Positions 6,986-35,447 of a DNA stretch of 64,000 nucleotides are shown here, piece after piece. The notes below the pieces were generated by a model. It was not told where the DNA came from, did not search any database, and saw nothing but the letters and a program-made list of their open reading frames with translations. The first letter of the stretch is position 1, and each line of letters begins with the position of its first letter. The position numbers and the translations under genes were made by a program. Where the stretch lies: NCBI RefSeq assembly GCF_026210795.1, contig NC_089450.1, positions 2,790,001 to 2,854,000 of the forward strand, read 5' to 3'. Origin of the DNA: Rhizophagus irregularis (Eukaryota; Glomeromycota; Glomeromycetes; Glomerales; Glomeraceae).

Positions 6986-7011
6986 AAAAAAACAATGGGG
7001 TGATTTTTATT

Positions 7012-7454
7012 GCACATCTGAAATGTGTGTCAGGTTGACGGCGCAGTGTGGCGCAGCGATTTTTCCAAAAAAAATTAAATTGCAATTTTTTTATTTAAAA
7101 TAAAACCTTTAAATTACTGCACTAGATGTATTTTCGTCCGCTCTGCAAATTTACTTAGAGTATATACGGGCGGTTTAGAAGGCTATTTTCGAGTTATTTA
7201 ACAAAAACCGTTTTTTTGACAAATCCAATTTTGGAAATGATCGGCAAAGACGATAAAATCAGTTGTTATATACTAAAGTCAAAATCTACGTCCAAAACCT
7301 CCTTCCGTTTATAAGTGAATTTTGTAAAACAGATGAAAATACATCTAATGTGTAAATTTGAAAGCATTACATTAAAAAGAAAATCTTCAACTTAGATTTT
7401 TTTGAATTACTGCGCCACACTGCGCCGTCAACCTGACACACATTTCAGACGTGC
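7012..7454. mobile_element. TIR element with 45-bp GC-rich ends
   Basis: The left arm 7012-7056 and right arm 7410-7454 are inverted copies, matching at all but about one position (GCACATCTGAAATGTG on the left against GCACGTCTGAAATGTG on the reversed right). Both run through a GGCGCAGTGTGGCGCAG core. The interior, about 350 bp, is AT-rich and lacks an ORF. I could not fix a target duplication. The element lies against the 5' end of the Tc1 relic and supplies part of the open frame at 6852-7085, which is therefore not a gene. Confidence 0.8.
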
Positions 7455-7882
7455 CGTAATTGTTTATAGTTACGTCATCATATGATCATCATAATTTTTA
7501 GCAAAGCAAAATTGTCCGTATAATTCTGGTCGCCAGGTTTATGTTACTTGCTTCTTGCTATTTTAGGAATTGCCGCTCATGATATTATCGGATAAAAGCA
7601 TAACAAGTTTCTGTTGAACTCTTCCATATTCAAGTCATACATCACTTAATGATGCTACATCCGAAAATAAAGAACATGACGGTTGCATATTTAAATGATT
7701 AGCTTGGTGATGGTAGTACAGTAGAGTGTCAATTTTTAGTATTTGATTGAAATAATATTATATAATTTAAGTGAATGTGCTAATTTTAAATGGAAGTATT
7801 TACCGTATTTTGCAGACCACAGTCTAAATACGGTACACTAAAGAGCTTACAGTTTTATTTTTGGATGGTAAGTCGGTAAGAA
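7455..7882 (+). other. Region with a coding-like scrap
   Basis: At 7624-7692 one frame reads HTSLNDATSENKEHDG, close to RTSSPNDAISEMKDMT in the frame at about 12386-12440. A splice-acceptor-like CTATTTTAG lies upstream at about 7558-7567. No longer frame is open. It is best read as a fragment of the same unidentified gene that has pieces beyond the following element. Confidence 0.35.
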
Positions 7883-7899
7883 CTTTGCAGAAACCTCTG

Positions 7900-8270
7900 G
7901 TTTTCACAAAATATGTTATACATAATCACTACATGTTACTAACAGATGGTATATATATGTTCTACATATTTTAATATACGTAATATGTTTGTAATATTAA
8001 TAAAATAATGTTATAATATTTTTAATATATGTTGAAATTTAAACTTAAACTAATATATAAATGTAGTAAATATTTTTGTAATATGAATAAAATAAATTTA
8101 CAATATTTTCGAATATGTACTTAAATTAATGATATAGTGAATAATTTGAATACATTGTTAATATATTTCAAATATGCTGTTGATATATTAATAACATATT
8201 TTGAATATTGTTGTTAATATATGAATAATATATTTTGAATATGTTGTTGATATATACTGAAACTGTGACT
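7900..8270. repeat. Degenerate AATATGTT-type subterminal repeat
   Basis: Short direct and inverted units of the form AATATGTT, ATATGTTGTT and AATATATTT are repeated through this stretch. A matching zone with ACATATG and ATATTTGACATAT units occupies about 11500-11880, just inside the other terminus of the element. Such arrays near both ends are typical of transposase-binding regions, but here that role is inference. Confidence 0.45.
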
Positions 8271-9029
8271 TTAACACTTCTAGCATGTGACTATCATGTG
8301 ACTAACAGGCCAATCAAGGTATTTTTTTCGTCTCGATTGTCCAGTTCAGTGCATCACTACTTTATATTGGCTATATGAATAATTTTTTTTTTAATTTTAA
8401 ATAATACAACTATTTTTTTTTAAAAAAATTTAAATTATAGATTTTATCCTTTTTATCCTTTCACTTCAACTTGACAATATAGAAGCAATAATAATGTTAA
8501 TACAATATTAATCCATTAATGAAAATACTATCTGAAAATACGTAAAAATTTGATTGGCTTTGCCATTTATGATAACATTAATGCATTATTATAATATAAC
8601 AAGTCACTCAGTCATTATTTAGTTGTTAATTTATTGATATAGCAATAATGTATAATAACGTAAATAAATTGTGTAATTAAACATACATAGGATATATTGG
8701 AGTTTACTTAAGAATCATAAACTTCGTAGCCACGCTCAATTAAGGCAATGTATTACTAGACCTACACTAAAGATAACTTTAGCAAGGCTTTCTTTGTGAA
8801 TTAAAAGAAATTTCATACACTTTGCCAGCTGGTGGGATAGCTTATGACCTTTAACCTCAAGTCTGTTTATACTAATAAACCCAGAATGCTTGCATCACTA
8901 ATAAAAAGTATAGTTAAGATGCTTCAAAAAATCCCTAAAAAGAAAAAATAAAATAAATGAACAATTAGTAAACATTCATCAAATTAAAATAAAAAAAAAA
9001 TACTTTCATTATTGTTTATAATCACATAA

Positions 9030-10010
9030 TATCAATTGAGATTAATTTGCATGACTCCAACTTGTACAGACAATCCCGGAAAAGTTACAGCCAAGTATAA
9101 GGGATATATATGATCAATATACCAATTACCATCAAAATTTTACACATCTACTAGATCCATTTAAAGAGCAAATATTTATCGGAAATCCAAAATTTTAAGC
9201 TTCTTACTCTAGTGGTATGTGAAAAACACAGAAATATAAAAATATTTGTGTTTCAACAAGCATAAAAGATTAAATAGTAGAAGTATTAGCAAGAGGAATA
9301 TTGAGAATAGTCTACAGATAATATAGAAGAAATTTGGAAAGGATACCTCTGACCTTTGACGTTGGCTGCGAGAGGTGCAACAAAAATTTTTACATGAAAA
9401 TAACACAACGTCTAAGAATTCAAGTAATTGTACTAACTAAAAAAGTAAATGATCCAGAAGATGAAGAATTGGTGATTTAATATATTATGATAACCGTTAA
9501 GGATGTTTAAATTGCTTTTTATTCTTATACCTAATTTTTTTAACATCAAAGAGTAAGAACCTATATAAAAAGAAACCCTTAAAAGTAGAAATAGTGAAGA
9601 GAGAAGTACAGACTTAAAGGAGAAGAGAGGATTACAATTATTCACACAGAGCTATATGGAAACAATTTTTTTTTTAAAAAAAAGAGATGATGAATTTGCA
9701 CGTTAATTTTCCCTATTTACATGCAAAATACCAAGAAATTAAGTGAAGAATTTAGGGTATTATCAGATGCAGACTTTAGTTTTGTATAATAAGGTTCCAG
9801 TATACTTAGCAGCAAAGGAAGTTTCACAAGAAGAACTTGAACTTTATTAAAAAATAATACTTAGGAAAAGATATCGGAGGTGGAAAAGGTAAGTATAAAA
9901 GAGGGTAAAAGCATTTTATTGTTGAAGAGAAGGAGAAAAAGAAAAGCAATTACAGGGAAAGGGGAAGAACAAGAAGATGCATTAAATAGTAACGTATGCA
10001 TAGTCATAGA
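9030..10010 (+). pseudogene. Decayed coding sequence inside copy A
   Basis: Several short frames read as protein although none is long: GKVTAKYKGY, DQYTNYHQNFTHLLDPF (about 9111-9200), VNDPEDEELVI (about 9447-9479), KKLSEEFRVLSDADFS (about 9732-9780) and VPVYLAAKEVSQEELELY (about 9795-9850). Frame changes and stops separate them. The last possible splice donor, GGTAAGTA, lies at about 9888. I do not recognise the family. This may be what remains of the gene that once moved the element, or a captured host gene. The minus-strand frames at 9209-9406 and 9433-9645 are shadows. Confidence 0.35.
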
Positions 10011-10184
10011 TAGCCCAGTTTCTTTTAGATAGATAAAATTAGTTTATATAAGGACTAAATGTTATTTAATTGCTGTAATAATTATATAAACTACACAATG
10101 GTTTTTACATTATAAAAAAGAAATGAAAAAAATTTTTATAAGAAACTTTTTTATCGGAAAAATGAGACTATATTTATATTAAAT

Positions 10185-10360
10185 TATCACGTGTATCACG
10201 TGATTTAATACTTTTTTAAACAAAAAAGTCTAAAGTATAAAAAAAAGTTTAAAAAAAAGTTTAAACATCTTTCCTTCTCTTTCGTAATTCCCCCTCCTTT
10301 ATTTTTCCTTATCTCTCTCTCTCTCGTACTTTCTCTTTCCTTCACTTTTTTTTTAGACAA
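10185..10360 (+). promoter_or_regulatory. Leader with CACGTG palindromes and pyrimidine tract
   Basis: TATCACGTGTATCACGTGA at about 10187-10205 contains two CACGTG (E-box type) sites. It is followed by a long C/T-rich run ending in TTTTTTTTAG at about 10355. Copy B has the same order on the minus strand: GTATCACATGATAC near 28634-28650, then purine-rich sequence (pyrimidine-rich on the minus strand) at 28440-28560 and 28270-28310. Conservation of the layout suggests a transcription start region for the cassette array. This is inference from position and composition. Confidence 0.4.
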
Positions 10361-11400
10361 ATGTAAATTTCCATATTTTTTGAAAGTTCTTGGACAAGGT
10401 TTGGTAAAGAGGAATGTTTTTAGCCTGCCTCTTGAAATAATTATTAATATTTCATTTCTTTTCTTCTCTAGGCAGCTTTTTGGTTCTCTGAACGGGAAGT
10501 TTGGTGAGTGTATTATTTTTTTAAAAATTTTATATTTCGTCTTTTAAAAAATGATTACTAATTTCTTTTTTCTTTTTTTCTTTTATTTTAAATGGCTTGG
10601 ACACATAGGATTTCAGTGAGAAATCAGCCTCGGGTTTTCTAATTTTAGAGAAGTCTGGATATGCAGCAGCACAGAACAGGTAAGTTCCAAAGAAGCACGC
10701 CTTCACTAACCAGATACGTGTTGGTATCTAACACTTTGAATAGAGTGGGAATGATTATTTTCGTTACCAGATCCTTCTGCGACTTGAAAGTTTTATTGAT
10801 GTCGAGTTGACTGCTTGTAGGTATTTATTTTCACTTCGGACATCACACTAACGGAAATTTGAAACTTTAAAAAAGTTTTCTTTTTTTCCATTTTTGAAGG
10901 GAAATCAGGAAACTTGAATCCTAATTAGTAGTAAGTTTCGAAAAAAAGGAACTTAAAATTTCATACAAAAGACTTTTTTACCATTTTCTTTTTTTTTAGG
11001 GGAATTAGCTCCGATGTGACTTCCCAAGTGAGTTTTTGAAAAGGAATTTGAAACTATAAAAAAAAGTTTTTATAGCTTTTTTTCCTTTTTGTAAGGAAAT
11101 TGGATCCAACTTGGAAAAACAGAATCCCAGATACTTGAGTTTCGAAAAAAGATGTTATAAAGTAAAAAGTTTTTTTAACGGGTTTCCCCTTTTTGTATGG
11201 AAACTAACTTCGTTGTGGGCATTGGATTCTCAAGTGAGTTCCGAAAAAAAAAGTTTCAAAACTTTATTATAATACAGCTTTTTATTAATATTTTTCTATT
11301 TTCTTTTGTAGGACTTTTTATTTCGGAACTCTTGTGAAAAGTCGTCAATTACAGTAACTTCATCTTTCACTTTGTAGGTCTCCTCTGATTCATTATCAGA
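10350..11400 (+). repeat. Tandem micro-exon-like cassette array, copy A
   Basis: At least six units show a pyrimidine tract ending in AG, a GC-richer core of 28-43 nt, and a GTAAGT/GTGAGT-like donor. The cores I place are 10472-10503, 10649-10679, 10900-10930, 11000-11027, 11096-11138 and 11200-11233, and another begins at 11313. The unit period is near 100 bp from 10900 onward. A core at about 10591 begins ATGGCTTGGACACAT, matching ATGGGCTGGACACAT in copy B. The cores are not multiples of three and give no long frame when joined. It could be a spliced non-coding transcript, a gene of duplicated micro-exons, or introner-like tandem units. Confidence 0.55.
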
Positions 11401-11891
11401 ATTCGCGAATTTCCTGAATCAATCATATGCACAAATTTAATTTAACGAAAAAGACAAGAAAAATCAAAATATCTTTATAGTACAATTGTTGCATTATTTT
11501 ATATTATTGACACATGATTATTTTACTATTTTGTTATTATTACTTTGTTTTTAATATATTTTCATATGTATAATCGTTATAAAATTAAATATCTATTATA
11601 TTATTGATACATATTTGACATATGATGACCATATAAAATTGGCATTTCGAAATAATGTTTTTATCATATCTTTGATACATATTCGACATATAATAGCCAC
11701 ATTTAAAAAAATATTTTTACCATATATATAACATATAGTTATTATATAAAAATTAGATTTCTATATTATATGTTCGGCATATTGTCAACATATAGTTAAA
11801 ACAGAGTTAACATAAATATGAATATCATATGTTTGGTATATTTTAAAAATATCTCTAACATATTTTTTATATTGATAGGGTTTCTGCAAAG

Positions 11892-22655: not shown

Positions 22656-23089
22656 TTGTTGTATTAAGGTACTATTTTCGAAACTTTAAATAATTAATAA
22701 CTAAATATTATACAGCCTTGAAATAATACATATTATGAATATACGTATCATTTCTAAGATTGTGAATGTTACCAATACATTCGTCATCTTTACAATTGTA
22801 AATGAAATGTACACTATTAACTACATTAACCACGCTAATGGGAAAAATCTTTCTCCAGCTATTTTCTGCTCGTATATTGGCGAGTAATATAGCTTTATCC
22901 AATTTGTACTCTCAAACCTAGTGTTGTTAAGTCCAAGCCATGCCGAACTGAACTGATGAACCGCGCCGATGGGGTCAATTTTGCTTGACTTGATGCTCCG
23001 AAGTCATTCAGTTCAGTTTGACTTGAAAAAGATAAGCCGGTAGGGGTCAATGGGGTCAATGGAGTTGATGGAACTAATATTAGATTTCA

Positions 23090-25672: not shown

Positions 25673-26110
25673 AAATTTACATTTTTATTAAAATATAACG
25701 AATTTTATTATAATACTGCATTTTACAATGATAAAAATATAAATTTTTATTATTTGCATTTTTTATCAGTCATTTCTATTACAATATATTATTACGATGA
25801 AAATTGCTATTACAATAATTAAATAAAATTTGATTTATTCTATCAAATAATAAGCTTCGTTAAATATTATTTAATATATCGATAAAACGTCTTTAATTAA
25901 TTTTTTCGCCTAATCTTCTACTTTAGCAACTAATCTAATAATACTTTTATTGCAGTTCGAAGCTATTTCAAAACTTCTTATTGACAATAAGTTGGCAAAA
26001 TTTTTACGAATCGTAAAAATTTCGCCGAGATAACATGCCGCCACGTGATCGATGCGAATTTGGGTCAATCTCGTGACGGCTAGGTTGCAAATCATCAAGT
26101 TTCTGCAAAG

Positions 26111-28990
26111 CTTTGCAGAAACTTTTAAAATCGAAACCACATCGTAACTATATCAAAACTTTATCATAGAACTTATCGTAAAGATTTAATACCATATCGT
26201 GACCAAATCTTGATTATAAGTTTACGCGGATCGTATGTATAAAGTTGATGCATATTAAGGAAATCGTCACCTGATTTAACCGGCTCGTGCAAAAATAGTA
26301 TTGAAATCGAAAACATATAGTAAATGTATATTTAAATTATATTAAATGCATGTTTAAGTTATAGTAAACAAATATTAAAGTTGCAGTAAAGTTATAGTTT
26401 ATTTATTTTAAAATTGATGTACTATAATAAACTTTATTTTAGAAATATTAAATTGTTCTATCCTAAATCTAATCATACGAATTATTCTAATCTATAAATA
26501 AAACTAAATTGTTCAATAAACATAGATATAAATTTCATATAACGTTAAATGTCCTCTTAACTCTATTAAAAACATTTTTTTCAAAATTTTTTTTTTTAAA
26601 AAATAAAGGTTACTTATTAAAATGCTTTTTAAAAAAAAAGTCTTTGAAAGTATTCTGAAACACACCTCTGGGGTTCCGGTAATAAAGGCGGGCTTGTGTC
26701 TTATGAAAAGATGAACAAAAATGTTATTAAAACATCTTTTTAAATTTAGTTTCGAAATTATTTTGAAACTCACATTTATCCTTTATAATTCTATCGTGAA
26801 GTTTTAAGATTTTCGCTTCTCATTCTATTAATTTTTTGCGAAACAAAGTGATTTCTGACATTGTATTACAAGGCCCTAGTCGTTGGTGAAATGATTATCA
26901 AGGAAGTAGCCGTTCTCCTTTTTTTAATAATGATAAGTAGTGGACATTTCCTATAATAACAATTAATTATTGGATCCCCATATTCCCATAAAGGAGGTAT
27001 TAGTTTTATTTGATTTCTTTGAACTTCGGAAGGTATTTTAACGAATCCTTACTAAGTTTCATAATGAACTCAATCTTCCAGTAGTCAGGACTTGAATCCT
27101 ACAAAAAGAAAATAGAGGAACGTCAACAATACGTTTTCTTTTTTAAGAAATCAAAAAAAGTAAAGTTTATGTTGAAACTTACTCTGTCTTTTCCGATGAC
27201 CTAGTTTGCCTGAATATACAAAAAAGAAAGTTTAAAAATTTTGAAACACTAAACATATGAGCCAGAACCTATATAATAGGAAAAAAACGTTAATAAAATG
27301 TTTTTAAGGTCTGCATCTGGAAATAATTTTGAAACTTCCCGATTCTTCTGTGTCCAATCTTACGAAAAAAGACAAAATCCATTTTTTTTAAAGGTTCAAA
27401 AATTTTTTTTTCGAAACTTATCTGTCCTACACGTCTAAAGAAAAAAGTTGCAATGCTAATGAATGTTTCGTTAAAATAGTTAGCTCAAAGAAAACCTACT
27501 CACCAAATTCTCACATGTTTAAAGTAATCCGAAGAAATGGCTACTATCTAAAAAAAGGAAACAAACCATTAGAAAACATTTCGTTAAGAGAAACAAATTA
27601 ACTGATTTTTCACCAAGAATTTACGCGTCCAATGTCTAACTATCACCCAAGTCATACTTGAAATATCGAAAGATAGATTATTGAATTCAGTCTTCAATAG
27701 TACAAAAGTATCGTATGGAGGGTACTCATCTTTAATCTAATCAACAGGGACTTTGGTTTAATTCAACTCTCACGATACCCTACGAATCCCTAAGCTTAGA
27801 AAAGGTATCTCATCGATATCTAAAAAAAAAAAGAAAAACAAAATCATTTAAAAAAAAACCTCCCATTGAAATCTCATCCCCCATCTAGAAAAGTCACCTA
27901 AAACAAAAGAATTAAATTCAAAATCATATACCCTAATTTTCTTTCCCATGTGTCCAGCCCATCTAAAAAAAAAGATAAAATTGAAGTTAATGTACAGTAC
28001 GTTTCGTTAGAATAAATAAACTAAAACAGAGAAAAAACTTACCAAAAATGAAATCCCACGCGTCCAAAGAAACCCGAAAAACTACCTGAAAAGAAATGAA
28101 CTGTTTGTTAAAATAAATTAAAGAAAAAAAATTTTTATCTAAAACTTACGAAATGTCACATAGGAGACCGAGGGAGCCGCCTAAAGAAAAAGAAAAAATT
28201 GAAATGTTATAACATTTCATTATCATTATAGAATTTGATTTTTTTTTTCTGGGTTCTCTTCAACTTTTTTTTAAATAAAATACGGGAGAAGAAGGAAAGG
28301 ATGAGGGATGAAAAACGAAATTTTTATAAAAAAAAATTTAAAAATATGGTGGTTAAAAAACCATAAAAAAAATATTTTTTTTTTTTAAGCAAATTATAAA
28401 ACAGTTTTTTTAGTAGAAAAAATTTTTTTTTAAAAAAAAAGATATAAAACAATAAAGGGAAGAAGGAATGAAGAGAAAAATGAAGGAAAGAAATGTGGGG
28501 AAATGAAAGGTAAAGGGCGAAAGGAAAGATTTTCGTTGGAAAAAAAAATTTAAAAGTTAAAAATAGTTTATTTTTATATTAATGATCGCTAAGTTAAAAA
28601 AAGTTTAGATCAAACTATTAATTATTTTATAATGTTCCGTGTATCACATGATACATAAGGCTTTTCCCGATGTTAAAAATTATCATACAGAATAAAATTT
28701 ATATAAAAAATATGAATAAAATAAATTGGCAGATTCATCACTAAATAATATTTAATACATCTAAGAAATATCTTAGATTAATTTTCACTACTAATTCTTG
28801 ATGTTATTTACCACCTATTCACCACCTATTTACCACCTATTTAATAGCATTTTACAACTTCGTAAAAATATGTTATCGACAATTTCACGAGATAATTTGA
28901 TACCATGTCGCCACATGTTGGATAATAGATCGTTGTGATTTGATGGCGATTTTTTAACTGCATGGTAACAAATCACAGGTTTCTGCAAAG
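26111..28990 (-). mobile_element. CTTTGCAGAAA-family element, copy B (about 2.9 kb)
   Basis: The left end CTTTGCAGAAAC at 26111 and the right end GTTTCTGCAAAG ending at 28990 are inverted repeats. It abuts copy C with no base between. Inside are an AT-rich subterminal zone (26300-26500), the best cassette array of the window (about 26560-28185, minus strand), a leader (28190-28660) and a terminal block similar to that of copy C. The array orientation is opposite to copy A. No transposase-like frame is present, so it is probably non-autonomous. Confidence 0.6.
26560..28185 (-). repeat. Tandem micro-exon-like cassette array, copy B
   Basis: On the minus strand the clearest units are 28180-28150, 28085-28043, 27962-27932 and 27547-27504. 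Each follows a T-rich tract ending in AG, and three of the four end in GTAAGT/GTGAGT. The core at 28085-28043 (TTCGGGTTTCTTTGGACG) and that at 27547-27504 (TTCTTCGGATTACTTTAAAC) align with each other and with core 1 of copy A. This means the cassette was duplicated together with its splice-like flanks. Further weaker units continue to about 26560. Joined cores give no long frame that I can see. Confidence 0.55.
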
Positions 28991-30442: not shown

Positions 30443-33400
30443 ATGGAACTTGACCACTCAAGTACTATCAAAAATTCTTTTGAACTGACGCCAAGATTAA
30501 AATCAAGTCCTACTCAAATTTTGTTTACCCCCTTTGATATAGATAATATTAGTTGCGATTGTGGACGTACATACTCTGAAACACTTTTATTACAAAAATT
30601 CTGCAAATATTGCTTATTTGTATATATTAAGAATACAACCAATTTCGATGAATACTTGGATATTCACTATAGAAAATATCTAAGCATCGAAGAACAATTT
30701 GAAAAATGGCCTGAGAGCTTATACTTCAAGCAAATAGTATCAAATCAATCATTCTTTTATGATAAGTCATATGAAACTTGTGAATTATGTGGTCACAAGC
30801 ATTATGGTATTATTTGTTCAGAATGTTATCCAATTTCTTTTGCGTGGTTAGAATCAACTTCTGCCATTCCAATTCTTTATTTACCTTGGTGGGATACTCA
30901 TAAACGGTGTATAATTTGTGATTCAAAACTAAAATTTAACTCAAATAGTCAAAAATTGTGTACAAATTGCTTGACAGTTTATATTGGATGTAGATATTGT
31001 TTAACAACAAATATTGTTTTGGGGATTACAGAACAATCTCAATGTATAAAATGTAAAAGAATATCATTGATTAATGTTAATATGTCTGCTAACATGACAT
31101 ATATTGGAGAATACTTTTCTAAATTCAACACTCATAGCTTTAATCAAATTGCTAACTATGTTAGTAACATTGGTAAAAATTCTAATATATTAGAAATATA
31201 TGGCCTTATAAAGAAGCTTAATTATTTTCATTTAAAGATATATTCTCAAATTGCAAATTTAGAAAAGAATGAAAATTCATTAAACGTAACTATACCAATT
31301 ATGTTTATCCCATTCAATAATAATGAACGTCATTGTTATTGTTGTAAAAAAAAAATATTCTAAAACTATCTTATTCAAACAAAAATATTGCAAGAATTGC
31401 TTATCCTAGTATATTAAGTATGCAACCAGTAGTGTGGATATTAGATATCCAATTTGTAACTTGGATGCATGTAAAACCATAATTAATAATTGTTGTAATA
31501 AACATGAACCAAGAAATTTGGGGTTTCATATTCAAGGATGGTGTGAGAACTGCTCTGATATTTCATACTTTCAACAAATAGTTACAAATCAGAAATATTA
31601 CTATTTATACAAAGGTTCAAATTTCTGTAGGTTATGTGGAAGTATCATTGTCGAATTCCAGTTATGCCCAAATTGTTATTTAATTTCTTTTGAATTTACA
31701 GAATCGAATTTTACTATTCCAATTCTTCATTTATCATGGTGGGATGCCTATGATCTATGTATAATTTGTGATCGGCTCCTAAAATCCAGATCTGATTGTC
31801 AAAAGTGGTGTTCAAAATGCTATATAATTTATACTGGATGTAGATATTGTTTAACAACAAATATTATTTTTGGAATTGTAAATCAATCTCAATGTATGAA
31901 ATGCAAAAGAATGCTATTAATTACTACTATTAATGTGAATAATATAACAAATATTGGAGAGCACTTACTAAAACTCAACACTCATAACTATAATCAAATT
32001 GCTAATTATGTGAATAATATTGATAAAAATTCAAATCCATTAGAAATATATAATTATATAAAGAAGCTTAGATATTTTGATTTGAAGATATATTCTCAAA
32101 TAATTGCAAATTTAGAAAGTAATGAAGATTCTATGCCAATTATGTTTGTCCCTTTTAATAATAATGAAGATAAATGTTATTGTTGCAATAAAGTATATTC
32201 TGAAACACCCTTATTCAAACAGAAATATTGTAAGGATTGCTTATATTGGTGTATTAAATATGCAACTAGTAGTTTGACTAATGGATGTGTACTTGATAAT
32301 TTGGATGTATATGTAGTAGGCACAACAAATACCAATTGTAAAAATCATGAACCAAGAAATTTGAATTTTTGCATCCAAGGATGGTGTGAAAATTGCTGTG
32401 AGATTTTATACTTCAAACAGATAGTTACAAATTGTAAAAGTGATTTTTGTAATATAGATCATTTTTATGAAGAAAACCATTGTAGATTATGTGGAAAATT
32501 AATCTACAAACGAAATAAGCAAGATAATGTTGTAGGGTTTAAGTTATGTTCAAATTGTCACTTATTTTCTTTTGAATTTACAGAATCAAATTTCACTATT
32601 CCAATTCTTCATTTATCATGGTGGGATGCTTATGATCAATGTATAATTTGTAATCAGTACCTAGAATTGAACTCTGACTGTCATAAATGGTGTTCAAATT
32701 GCGTTGTAAGTTACACTGGATGTAGATATTGTTTAACAACAAATATTATTTTTGGAATTGCAAATCAATCTCAATGTATAAAATGCAGAAGAATACTATT
32801 AATTACTATTAATAGTAAGAATAATATGGCAAATATTGGGAAATACCTTCTAAAATTCAATACTCATAACTATAATCAAATTGCTAATTATGTGAATAAT
32901 GTTGGTAAAAATTTTAATCCATTAGAAATATATGATTATATAAAGAAGCTTAGGTATTTTGATTTGAAGATATATTCTCAAATAATTGCAAATTTAGAAA
33001 GTAATGAAGATTCTATGCCAATTATGTTTGTCCCTTTTAATAATAATGAAGATAAATGTTATTGTTGCAATAAAGTATATTCTGAAACACCCTTATTCAA
33101 ACAGAAATATTGTAAGGATTGCTTATATTGGTGTATTAAATATGCAACTAGTAGTTTGACTAATGGATGTGTACTTGATAATTTGGATGTATATGTAGGC
33201 ACAACAAATGCCAATTGTAAAAATCATGAACCAAGAAATTTGAATTTTTGCATCCAAGGATGGTGTGAAAATTGCTGTGAGATTTTATACTTCAAACAGA
33301 TAGTTACAAATTGTAAAAGTGATTTTTGTAATATAGATCATTTTTATGAAGAAAACCATTGTAGATTATGTGGAAAATTAATCTACAAACGAAATATACA

Positions 33401-35447
33401 AGATAATATTGTGGAGTATAAATTATGTTCAAATTGTTATTTATTTTCTTTTGAACTCATAGAATCAACTTCTACTGTTCCAATTCTTTATTTATCATGG
33501 TGGGATACTTATAATCAATGTATAGTTTGTGATTTAAGACTAGAATTTAAATCAAATTGTCAAAAATGGTGTTCAAATTGCTTTATAATTTATACTGGAT
33601 GTAGATATTGTTTAACGACAAATGTTATTTTTGGTTATATTGATCAATCTCAATGTAAAAAATGCAAAAGAGTTATTACCATTGATATTACTGGAAGTTG
33701 CAATATAGATGAATTTCTTTATCTTACAAGAGTTAATATTATTAATGATTATCAATCTGTTGATTATTTTAATATTAACAAAATTTCTAATCCATCAGAT
33801 ATATATAGTTTAATTAAAAAATTTAATTACTTCTCTTCAAAACCAAAAATAGAATGGATTTCATATTCACAAATAGAAAATTTTACGAAAATAGCAGAAG
33901 GTGGGTATGGTAAAATTTATAAAGCATCGATCAATGGATATATTGTCGCTGTAAAAGAAATCTTAAATTCTCAAGTTTCCAGTAAATGTTTTTTAAATGA
34001 GGTAATTTTTTAATTTTAAAACCTTTTTTTTTTTCTTTTTTGAAACATGCATGTATAATTTTTATTATTAATTAGATAAAATCACTTTATCAATGTTACG
34101 ATGATAAATTTGAATATATTATTAAATGTCATGGTATAACAAAAAATCCTATAACAAGAGAATTTATGTTTATAATGAAGTATGCAAATGGAGGAAATTT
34201 ACATGATTATTTACGAGAAAATTTTACAAAGATTACGTGGAAGAAAAAATTATATATTTTATGGAGAATTTCGGATGGGTAGTATAATTTTTATAAATTA
34301 ATTTTTATTATATAAATAAATTAATTATTTTTTTATCTATTTTATTTCAGCCTTCAAACTATTCATGAAAAGGATTTCATACATCGAGATTTTCATAGTG
34401 GAAATATATTGATCGAAATAATTGAAAATGAATTGTGCAATATTGAACAATATTTAATTGGAGACTTAGGATTATCACAACCTGCAAATAATACTTTATC
34501 AAGCAGTGAAATATATGGAGTAATATCATATGTTTCTCCAGAAATATTTAAGGGAGCTACATTTTCAAAAGCGTCAGATATTTATAGTATGGGTATGATT
34601 ATGTGGGAACTGACAACTGGTTGTAGGCCTTTTTCTAATGTTAAACATGATCATGGTCTAGTTTATCAAATTCTCGACGGAAAAAGACCTAAAATTACAG
34701 ATGAAACTCCCGAAGATTTTGCCAATTTAATTAAAAAATGCTGGAATTCTGATCCCAAAAAGAGGCCTTCGGCGAAAAAAATTTGTGAATGTCTTAACTC
34801 TTGGTCAAATATGGATAAAGATATTAACCAATTTAATCAAGCTGAAGAAATACGATTAGAGTTAACAAAATCTAAGTCAATTGGACCAGAATTTAATGGA
34901 ACAACTCATTCAGAAGCAATATATACAAGTAGATCATTAGGTTCTTTTATTTCCAAATTTTTAACACCTTTAAAGCAAGGTAATTATAATATTGCTTTTA
35001 TTAAATGGTCTAAAATTAATCGAATAATCACGAAGGTAACTTTGGCTAATATTAAATATTAACATATATTTTTTTTAGAATATGTAACAAAAGAATTTGA
35101 GTTTGATATTGATGATATTCAAAGGTACGACCAAAATGTACGAGTAATTTTTCTGATATTATCAACCTTACTAAATATGATTATTAATATATTTAGGACA
35201 AGTGGAGATTTTATTATTCAAAATTCAAGAGATCAGCATATACTTAATACTAGCAAACCACAGAGCAAAGCAATAAATCTTTTAGGAAAACGTAATATCG
35301 ATGAAACTCACGTTAATAGTAAGCTTTTTATTTATATGTTGTGTATTAATAATATTATTATATGAAGTAATTATTTTTTATTGTTCACATTAAATAGGAA
35401 AGCATATTAAAATTAGTAACGAAATTAACACAGAATCTCAGGAATAG
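30443..35447 (+). CDS. TKL-like protein kinase with four tandem Cys-rich units
   Basis: Four repeats of 780-882 bp precede a kinase domain. Each unit has CxxC-type knuckles (CYCC, CKDC, WCENC, CRLCG, CIIC, CSNC, GCRYCLTTN, CIKCKR), ending near PIMFVPFNNNE. They probably bind zinc. The kinase shows AEGGYGKIYKA (Gly loop), VAVKEIL, IHRDFHSGN, GDLGLS in place of DFG, VSPEIF and KASDIYSMGMIMWEL, so it is probably catalytic, in the cytosol, since I see no signal peptide. Introns are 34002-34075, 34279-34350, 34980-35078, 35125-35196 and 35319-35397. The stop is at 35445. A frameshift in the ten-A run 31346-31355 and a TAG at 31407 separate unit 1 from the rest. The kinase half is otherwise intact. 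Confidence 0.85.
32073..33395 (+). repeat. Near-identical internal duplication, period 882 bp
   Basis: About 430 bp from 32073 recur at about 32955 with very few differences, including a 3-bp difference in the stretch encoding YVVGTTNTNC versus YVGTTNANC. The identity is much higher than between units 1 and 2, so this unit duplicated recently in frame. Confidence 0.85.

What the first reader, a model, noticed from the sequence alone, without database searches (positions are those of the whole stretch)
10350..11400. Mobile tandem array of micro-exon-like cassettes
Repeated units of T-rich tract, AG, 28-45 nt GC-richer core and GTAAGT/GTGAGT sit inside an element bounded by CTTTGCAGAAACC inverted ends. 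At least one core (ATGGCTTGGACACAT) and one further core are homologous to cores in copy B, and cores within B resemble each other. The cassette therefore seems to have multiplied together with its splice-like flanks. I know of no named family with this layout.
Basis: partly seen in the sequence, partly recalled or inferred. Interest (0 to 1): 0.8.

Follow-up and report, generated by a model that had tools for sequence, protein, structure and literature searches.

The report
Transposon-borne tandem micro-exon/intron arrays
A jumping DNA element in a root-symbiotic fungus carries a row of tiny exon-like pieces, each with its own splice signals, and the same ~110-letter cassette recurs in hundreds of copies inside at least two families of such elements; whether it is spliced or useful is not known.

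Summary
The genome is very probably Rhizophagus irregularis DAOM197198. Element A (7883-11891) has CTTTGCAGAAACC ends and 2-bp duplicated flanks, as have 22 of 23 recognisable end pairs of the family (element B not counted; its left end abuts another end). Its array has 3 strict acceptor-core-donor units (0.15 expected, P 0.002), none on the other strand; B has 7 matches at 6 acceptors (0.19 expected). The unit is a cassette of about 111 bp: an intron (GTAAGT, TTAACGAACA-TTACTAAC-TGTTCGTT, T-tract, TAG) plus a core of about 33-36 nt. A profile found 237 units in 44 of 49 sources, most chosen for similarity. Arrays occur in two terminal-repeat families, probably CMC/Plavaka-like; core and intron multiplied together and travel by transposition. 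Three transposase-bearing element types (four loci) show no array; a fourth has five weak units. Cores give a weak coding hint. Splice dinucleotides are at most weakly spared among recent copies; no spliced retrocopy was found. Best reading: a tandem exon-intron array, splice-ready in layout, perhaps once coding, carried as a mostly decaying passenger by non-autonomous transposons. Splicing is unproven. A near-invariant, foldable ~140-nt block lies in the element's left arm.

The parts
7883..11891 (+). Element A: DNA transposon without a transposase ORF found, 13-bp terminal inverted repeats, flanks AA/AA
   Evidence: Exact terminal repeats; flanks read; no stop-to-stop frame above 112 aa inside; relatives at other sites
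7883..7895 (+). Left terminal repeat CTTTGCAGAAACC
11879..11891 (-). Right terminal repeat
10260..10365 (+). Pyrimidine-rich stretch at the head of the array, present in the 12 aligned rows; promoter-like only by inference
10370..11400 (+). Array of exon-like cassettes
   Evidence: 3 strict units against 0.15 expected; alignment to relatives
10406..10495 (+). Cassette matched by the profile, E 1e-9; core 10472-10503, donor GTGAGT at 10504
10592..10615 (+). Core beginning ATGGCTTGGACACAT; acceptor AA in A, TAG in L006-L010
10900..10930 (+). Core with acceptor and donor GTAAGT
11000..11027 (+). Core with acceptor and donor GTGAGT
8917..9007 (-). Single cassette-like intron end in the left arm of A, reading towards the left terminal repeat, E 8e-7
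8704..8863 (-). Near-invariant block downstream of that acceptor, foldable on this strand
   Evidence: 31 copies, 22 distinct, mean column identity 90%; 8700-8880 folds with z -2.98 on minus, -1.06 on plus
26111..28990 (-). Element B, array on the minus strand
27431..28234 (-). Five profile-matched cassettes of B: 28234-28163, 28140-28059, 28025-27958, 27605-27514, 27494-27431 (E 3e-9 to 0.04)
27948..27962 (-). Core ATGGGCTGGACACAT in B, partner of the core at 10592

Best explanation
The feature is a tandem array of exon-intron cassettes carried inside non-autonomous cut-and-paste DNA transposons, probably of the CMC/EnSpm-Plavaka type. One cassette is about 111 bp: an intron with a full set of U2-type signals (donor, branch-like CTAAC, T-tract, TAG) and a micro-exon of about 33-36 nt. 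Shown: tandem multiplication of core and flanks together, presence in two terminal-repeat families, spread by transposition, strand-specific order of splice signals. Inferred: the array comes from a gene of phase-0 micro-exons; when transcribed from the pyrimidine-rich head it would be spliced by the host; most present copies are decaying passengers without selected function. Not shown: transcription, splicing or any product.
For: Strict units enriched and one-stranded in A and B. TRF finds a 111-bp period, 5.5 copies, in L033. 237 cassettes in 44 of 49 sources held at that time. In 78 non-redundant units the branch-like CTAA and the TAG are among the best kept columns, better than the palindromic partner of CTAAC, which fits splicing rather than a plain palindrome. 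Whole-genome pattern of the intron core: 115 matches, 0 for the reversed control. An array in a CATCAGTAAA element (L033) and one in a CTTTGCAGAAAC element (L027) align over 561 columns, about five cassettes, in the longest of several registers, while outside the cassettes only a 40-nt match (E 3e-5) was seen. 193 terminal repeats against 3 control matches. 22 of 23 end pairs with a 2-bp duplication. Coding hint: 59 non-redundant cores, 29 of length multiple of three (P 0.013), stops in 15 cores in frame 0 against 28 and 29 in the other frames (P 0.004).
Against: No RNA data. A joined-core query found no match covering two whole cores. Only 102 of 237 units show both a recognised acceptor and donor by my rule. 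The frame and length statistics are on homologous cores, so one ancestral accident could produce them; read from the 3' edge the frames differ little (stops in 21, 27, 24 cores), and the first, looser set of 85 units had lengths 34/24/27 modulo three. The ATGG-core acceptor is lost in A and unit 2 lost both edges in L014-L016. Sparing of splice dinucleotides is weak. The two-family collinearity is not unique, since tandem units align in several registers. The superfamily call for the CTTTGCAG family rests on a long element without a profile hit.
Confidence: 0.57

Rival explanations
1. The array is an active splicing device of the transposons: a multi-intron leader or non-coding transcript upstream of the element's terminal gene exons that raises expression or shields the transcript from silencing.
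For: In L019, L021, L024 and L028, four of the six fetched loci with a match to the last transposase-like ORF of L022 (L022 itself included), that ORF or remnant lies downstream of the array on the same strand. Splice signals persist across subfamilies 67-80% alike. An unusually uniform intron with CTAAC and a long T-tract.
Against: In L022 and L029 the ORF lies on the other strand from the array. Four loci with transposase ORFs (L045-L048; L045 and L046 are 99% identical copies) have no cassette at E<=0.5; L022 has five, E 2e-6 to 0.03. Orientation is not uniform: arrays read towards the nearer end in A, L009, L013, L018, L021, L022, L027 and L028, but not clearly in B, L024 and L026. Many units have lost an edge.
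Confidence: 0.2
2. Introner-like invasion: the intron is the mobile unit and has inserted repeatedly, cutting an exon into pieces.
For: Introns are much alike across loci.
Against: Cores are homologous too and the period is regular, as in tandem duplication. No match in three actin-family loci (best E 3.4) nor in the 64-kb window outside elements A and B. Host genes at large were not surveyed.
Confidence: 0.08
3. A DNA-level repeat (satellite or protein-binding array) whose T-tracts and palindromes imitate splice signals.
For: Palindromic consensus AACGAACA...TGTTCGTT; over the eight pairs A-C cells (51) are as common as G-U cells (43), so there is no clear RNA-helix signature. No RNA evidence.
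Against: Donor, branch-like site, T-tract and acceptor occur in the right order on one strand only; CTAA and TAG are kept better than most of the palindrome arms.
Confidence: 0.15

Closest known systems
Plavaka / EnSpm-CMC DNA transposons of fungi (PMC12730594, passages read)
   Same: 2-bp duplications; the second array family ends CATCAGTAAA...TTTACTGATG, fitting the PlavakaB ends CATCA..TGATG quoted there; long element L022 has a transposase-like ORF with a CxxC motif
   Different: CTTTGCAG...CTGCAAAG ends are not among the ends quoted; no PF18759 hit for L022; no exon-intron array in the passages read
Introners and introner-like elements (PMC9860276 passages; PMC4457414 listing)
   Same: A family of near-alike introns linked to DNA transposons
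   Different: Here exon and intron form one tandem unit inside the transposon; no insertion into host genes seen in the little that was checked
Schistosome micro-exon genes (PMC10526429, abstract start in a listing)
   Same: Rows of very short exons
   Different: Those are host genes for secreted proteins with long introns; here introns are short, many frames are broken and the array is mobile
Tandem exon duplication (recalled)
   Same: Exon copied with flanking intron
   Different: Up to about a dozen units per locus, at many loci, moved by transposons

Membership tests
Plavaka / CMC DNA transposon | Terminal inverted repeats with 2-bp target duplication | tested here: met
   22 of 23 end pairs in the CTTTGCAGAAAC family, B not counted; GA, AT, AA, AA in four CATCAG copies
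Plavaka / CMC DNA transposon | Ends TGT..ACA or CATCA..TGATG (as quoted in PMC12730594) | tested here: not met
   Not met by the family of the finding (CTTTGCAG ends); met by the second array family
Plavaka / CMC DNA transposon | Transposase profile PF18759 | tested here: not met
   No PF18759 match for four L022 ORFs at E<=10; PF18759 copies exist elsewhere in the genome
Plavaka / CMC DNA transposon | C(2)C and H(3-4)H between second D and last E | tested here: inconclusive
   GCRSC and GCRTC seen by eye in L022 and L047 translations; catalytic residues not aligned
Introner-like element | Intron alone is the repeated mobile unit in unrelated genes | tested here: not met
   Unit includes the core; none in three actin-family loci; other host genes not surveyed
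Micro-exon gene | Micro-exons joined in one open frame | tested here: inconclusive
   29 of 59 lengths multiple of three, frame 0 with fewer stops, but 15 of 59 cores have stops there
Micro-exon gene | Spliced transcript and protein | not testable with these tools
   No RNA or protein data held

The most novel reading that the evidence does not exclude
Non-autonomous transposons of an arbuscular mycorrhizal fungus carry a self-amplifying exon-intron cassette: each 111-bp duplication adds a ready-made spliceable micro-exon, so the arrays work as a mobile source of new exons, or as a splicing-based shield of transposon transcripts from silencing.
Probability: 0.18. Interest if true: 0.8.

Novelty: new variant of a known kind. 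Interest (0 to 1): 0.5.

Why it matters
If spliced, it would show DNA transposons multiplying exon plus intron as one unit, a route to new exons and introns that differs from introners, in an organism in which about two thirds of transposons are called unclassified (PMC11075540, abstract passage). Even as a relic it gives a marker (the intron core, 115 pattern matches in the genome) to sort non-autonomous elements and to ask how arrays passed between terminal-repeat families. Existing RNA reads could test it.

Tried and rejected
Hairpin around the branch-like site: 451 of 577 cells pair against a shuffle mean of 431 (none of 2000 shuffles reached it; slid partners pair far less), but A-C cells (51) are as common as G-U cells (43); one pair favours G-U (14 to 2), two favour C-A or A-C (19 to 9, 16 to 12), and the units are related. 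I do not claim an RNA helix. Rfam: nothing at gathering score in the window; the best weak match in the element is E 0.26, 25.6 bits against a cut-off of 46. Coding of the left-arm block: rejected because L018, L019, L021, L027 and L028 share a 1-nt deletion that breaks the frame while most of the block stays unchanged. Covariation in that block: 44 pairs, 1 with a double change, so no real test. Array as part of an intact transposase gene: not seen in L045-L048; only parts of those elements' ends lie in the stretches cut. SP7-type effector genes (PMC11333574, passages): considered, not tested. A MULE ORF in L012 and a Tc1-like ORF in L019 are taken as nested insertions; nesting not proven. 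Literature: searches listed no paper whose title or shown abstract describes such arrays; most subscription papers are not held.

Rows dropped: the 78-unit alignment uses 130 of 207 profile matches (E<1e-5, near full length), then made non-redundant; the 59 cores are 102 of 237 units with both edges, then made non-redundant. The copies are 24 rows in six groups that I chose, not every copy. BLAST rows under 80 columns, and rows beyond 70 per query, were not printed.

Full report
Where the window lies. G000 has 146,748,485 bases in 32 contigs and contig C13 is 5,085,394 bases long. The R. irregularis DAOM197198 assembly GCA_026210795.1 is listed with 32 scaffolds, a scaffold N50 of 5,085,394 and 146,773,001 bases (PMC10234402, passages). 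The totals differ by about 25 kb, but I take the window to be that fungus.

The element. CTTTGCAGAAACC is at 7883-7895 (+) and 11879-11891 (-). The flanks are AA on both sides. Among fetched loci with both ends recognisable (up to 2 mismatches), together with A, 22 of 23 pairs show identical 2-bp flanks: 11 TA, 5 TT, 3 AA, 1 each AC, CT, AT; L009 does not. Where a locus has several candidate ends (L006, L007, L018) I took one pair. Element B (26111-28990) is not in that count: its left end abuts an inverted end at 26098-26110 and its flanks do not match. Genome-wide there are 193 exact CTTTGCAGAAACY ends against 3 for the reversed control.

Copies. The array of A has five further near-complete copies at 88-96% and partial relatives at 67-95% (only 40 of 73 candidates scored). 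B's array has copies at 99% and 96%. The L027 array has 13 further copies at 91-99%. Where ends were read they stand at separate sites with their own 2-bp flanks, so arrays moved by transposition.

The units. A strict rule finds 3 units in the A array (0.15 expected, P 0.002) and 7 matches at 6 acceptors in B (0.19 expected, none of 500 simulations), none on the opposite strands; over the window the rule finds 3 and 10 on the two strands with 1.5 expected for one strand (largest of 60 simulations 6). In L033 the array is a 111-bp tandem repeat, 5.5 copies, 74% matches; TRF did not report the L027 array as such. A profile grown from the L033 unit found 207 units in 40 loci plus the window (E<=0.05) and 237 in 44 of 49 sources after more loci were added (E<=0.01). 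Most loci were chosen for similarity, so this is no genome estimate. In the window the profile finds seven units, all in A or B.

The intron. In 78 non-redundant units the consensus is TTTTAACGAACA-TTACTAAC-TGTTCATT-T(n)-TAG, with CTAA and TAG among the best kept columns. The pattern TTAAYRAAYR..CTAAYNGTTYRTTT has 115 matches in the genome and 0 for its reversed control. Three actin-family loci contain no such intron (best E 3.4).

Two transposon families. Arrays in L031-L033, L035, L043 and L044 lie in elements with ends CATCAGTAAA...TTTACTGATG; flanks are GA, AT, AA, AA in L033, L032, L035, L044; L031 is unclear and L043's left end was not compared. PlavakaB ends are given as CATCA..TGATG with 2 or 3 bp duplications (PMC12730594, passages). 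The L033 and L027 arrays align over 561 columns at 67% in the longest of several registers; outside the cassettes only a 40-nt match, E 3e-5, was seen.

Relation to transposase. L022 (ends CTTTGCAG, 8 kb) has transposase-like ORFs without a Pfam match; 138 genome matches to its central ORF are listed. Among the 30 loci then held, six match its last ORF, L022 itself included: in L019, L021, L024 and L028 the match lies downstream of the array on the same strand, in L022 and L029 on the opposite strand. L045-L048, which hold transposase ORFs, have no cassette at E<=0.5; L045 and L046 are 99% alike over 6.1 kb, so these are three kinds. L022 has five units near its left end, E 2e-6 to 0.03. An array is therefore not needed in a transposase-bearing element. 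Arrays read towards the nearer end in A, L009, L013, L018, L021, L022, L027 and L028, but not clearly in B, L024 and L026.

Selection tests. Within six groups of copies (24 rows), splice dinucleotides differ in 5 of 462 cells; with gaps counted, 946 of 21968 other cells differ (P 0.00015) and 83 of 3591 core cells (P 0.09). With substitutions only, the contrast to other cells falls to P 0.14, to other AG/GT pairs P 0.015, to cores P 0.55.

Coding. Of 59 non-redundant cores with both edges, 29/9/21 have length 0/1/2 modulo three; stops occur in 15, 28 and 29 cores in frames 0, 1, 2 from the 5' edge, in 21, 27 and 24 counted from the 3' edge, and in about 28 when shuffled (P 0.013 and 0.004). 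A looser first set of 85 units gave 34/24/27. Examples of frame-0 peptides are VILSLFGREIL and TVLSDHFEGDIL. The cores share descent, so this is a hint of a phase-0 micro-exon ancestor, not proof.

Splicing. A query of joined L027 cores gave 67 matches, none covering two whole cores; no processed copy was found. No RNA data could be used here.

Left-arm block. On the minus strand, 8704-8863, shortly after a cassette-type acceptor, lies a block found in 31 sources (the window included; 22 distinct) with 90% mean column identity. The block is 89-99% identical to A's, while the 310-340 nt that include its upstream intron are 83-99% identical and in L009, L010, L012 and L013 only the block side aligns. 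The segment 8700-8880 folds better than shuffles on the minus strand (-46.4 kcal/mol, z -2.98, 2 of 200 as good) and not on the plus strand (z -1.06, 33 of 200). A shared frameshift argues against coding. Its invariance prevents a covariation test. No Rfam family fits.

Verdict. The best reading is a tandem exon-intron array carried by non-autonomous, probably CMC-type transposons, splice-ready in layout, decaying in most copies. Splicing and function remain open.

Noticed in passing
window 8704-8863 (-): Near-invariant ~140-nt block with sharp edges and a better-than-shuffled minus-strand fold, shared by 31 sources whose flanks differ more; possible structured RNA or cis element of the transposons.
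   Followed up: partly
window 26098-26123: Two inverted CTTTGCAGAAACT ends abut head to head, forming a 26-bp palindrome at the left end of element B.
   Followed up: no
window 30798-33708: Four tandem copies of a 300-nt segment at 850-882 bp spacing, the others 70-86% identical to the reference copy.
   Followed up: no
window 7007-7061 and 7405-7459: Inverted repeat of 55 nt, 91% complementary, just left of element A.
   Followed up: no
window 22711-22875 (-): Weak match (44%, E 3e-7) to the last transposase-like ORF of L022.
   Followed up: no
L012 1107-3645; L019 2181-3248: MULE transposase ORF and Tc1-like transposase ORF inside array-bearing elements, probably nested insertions.
   Followed up: partly
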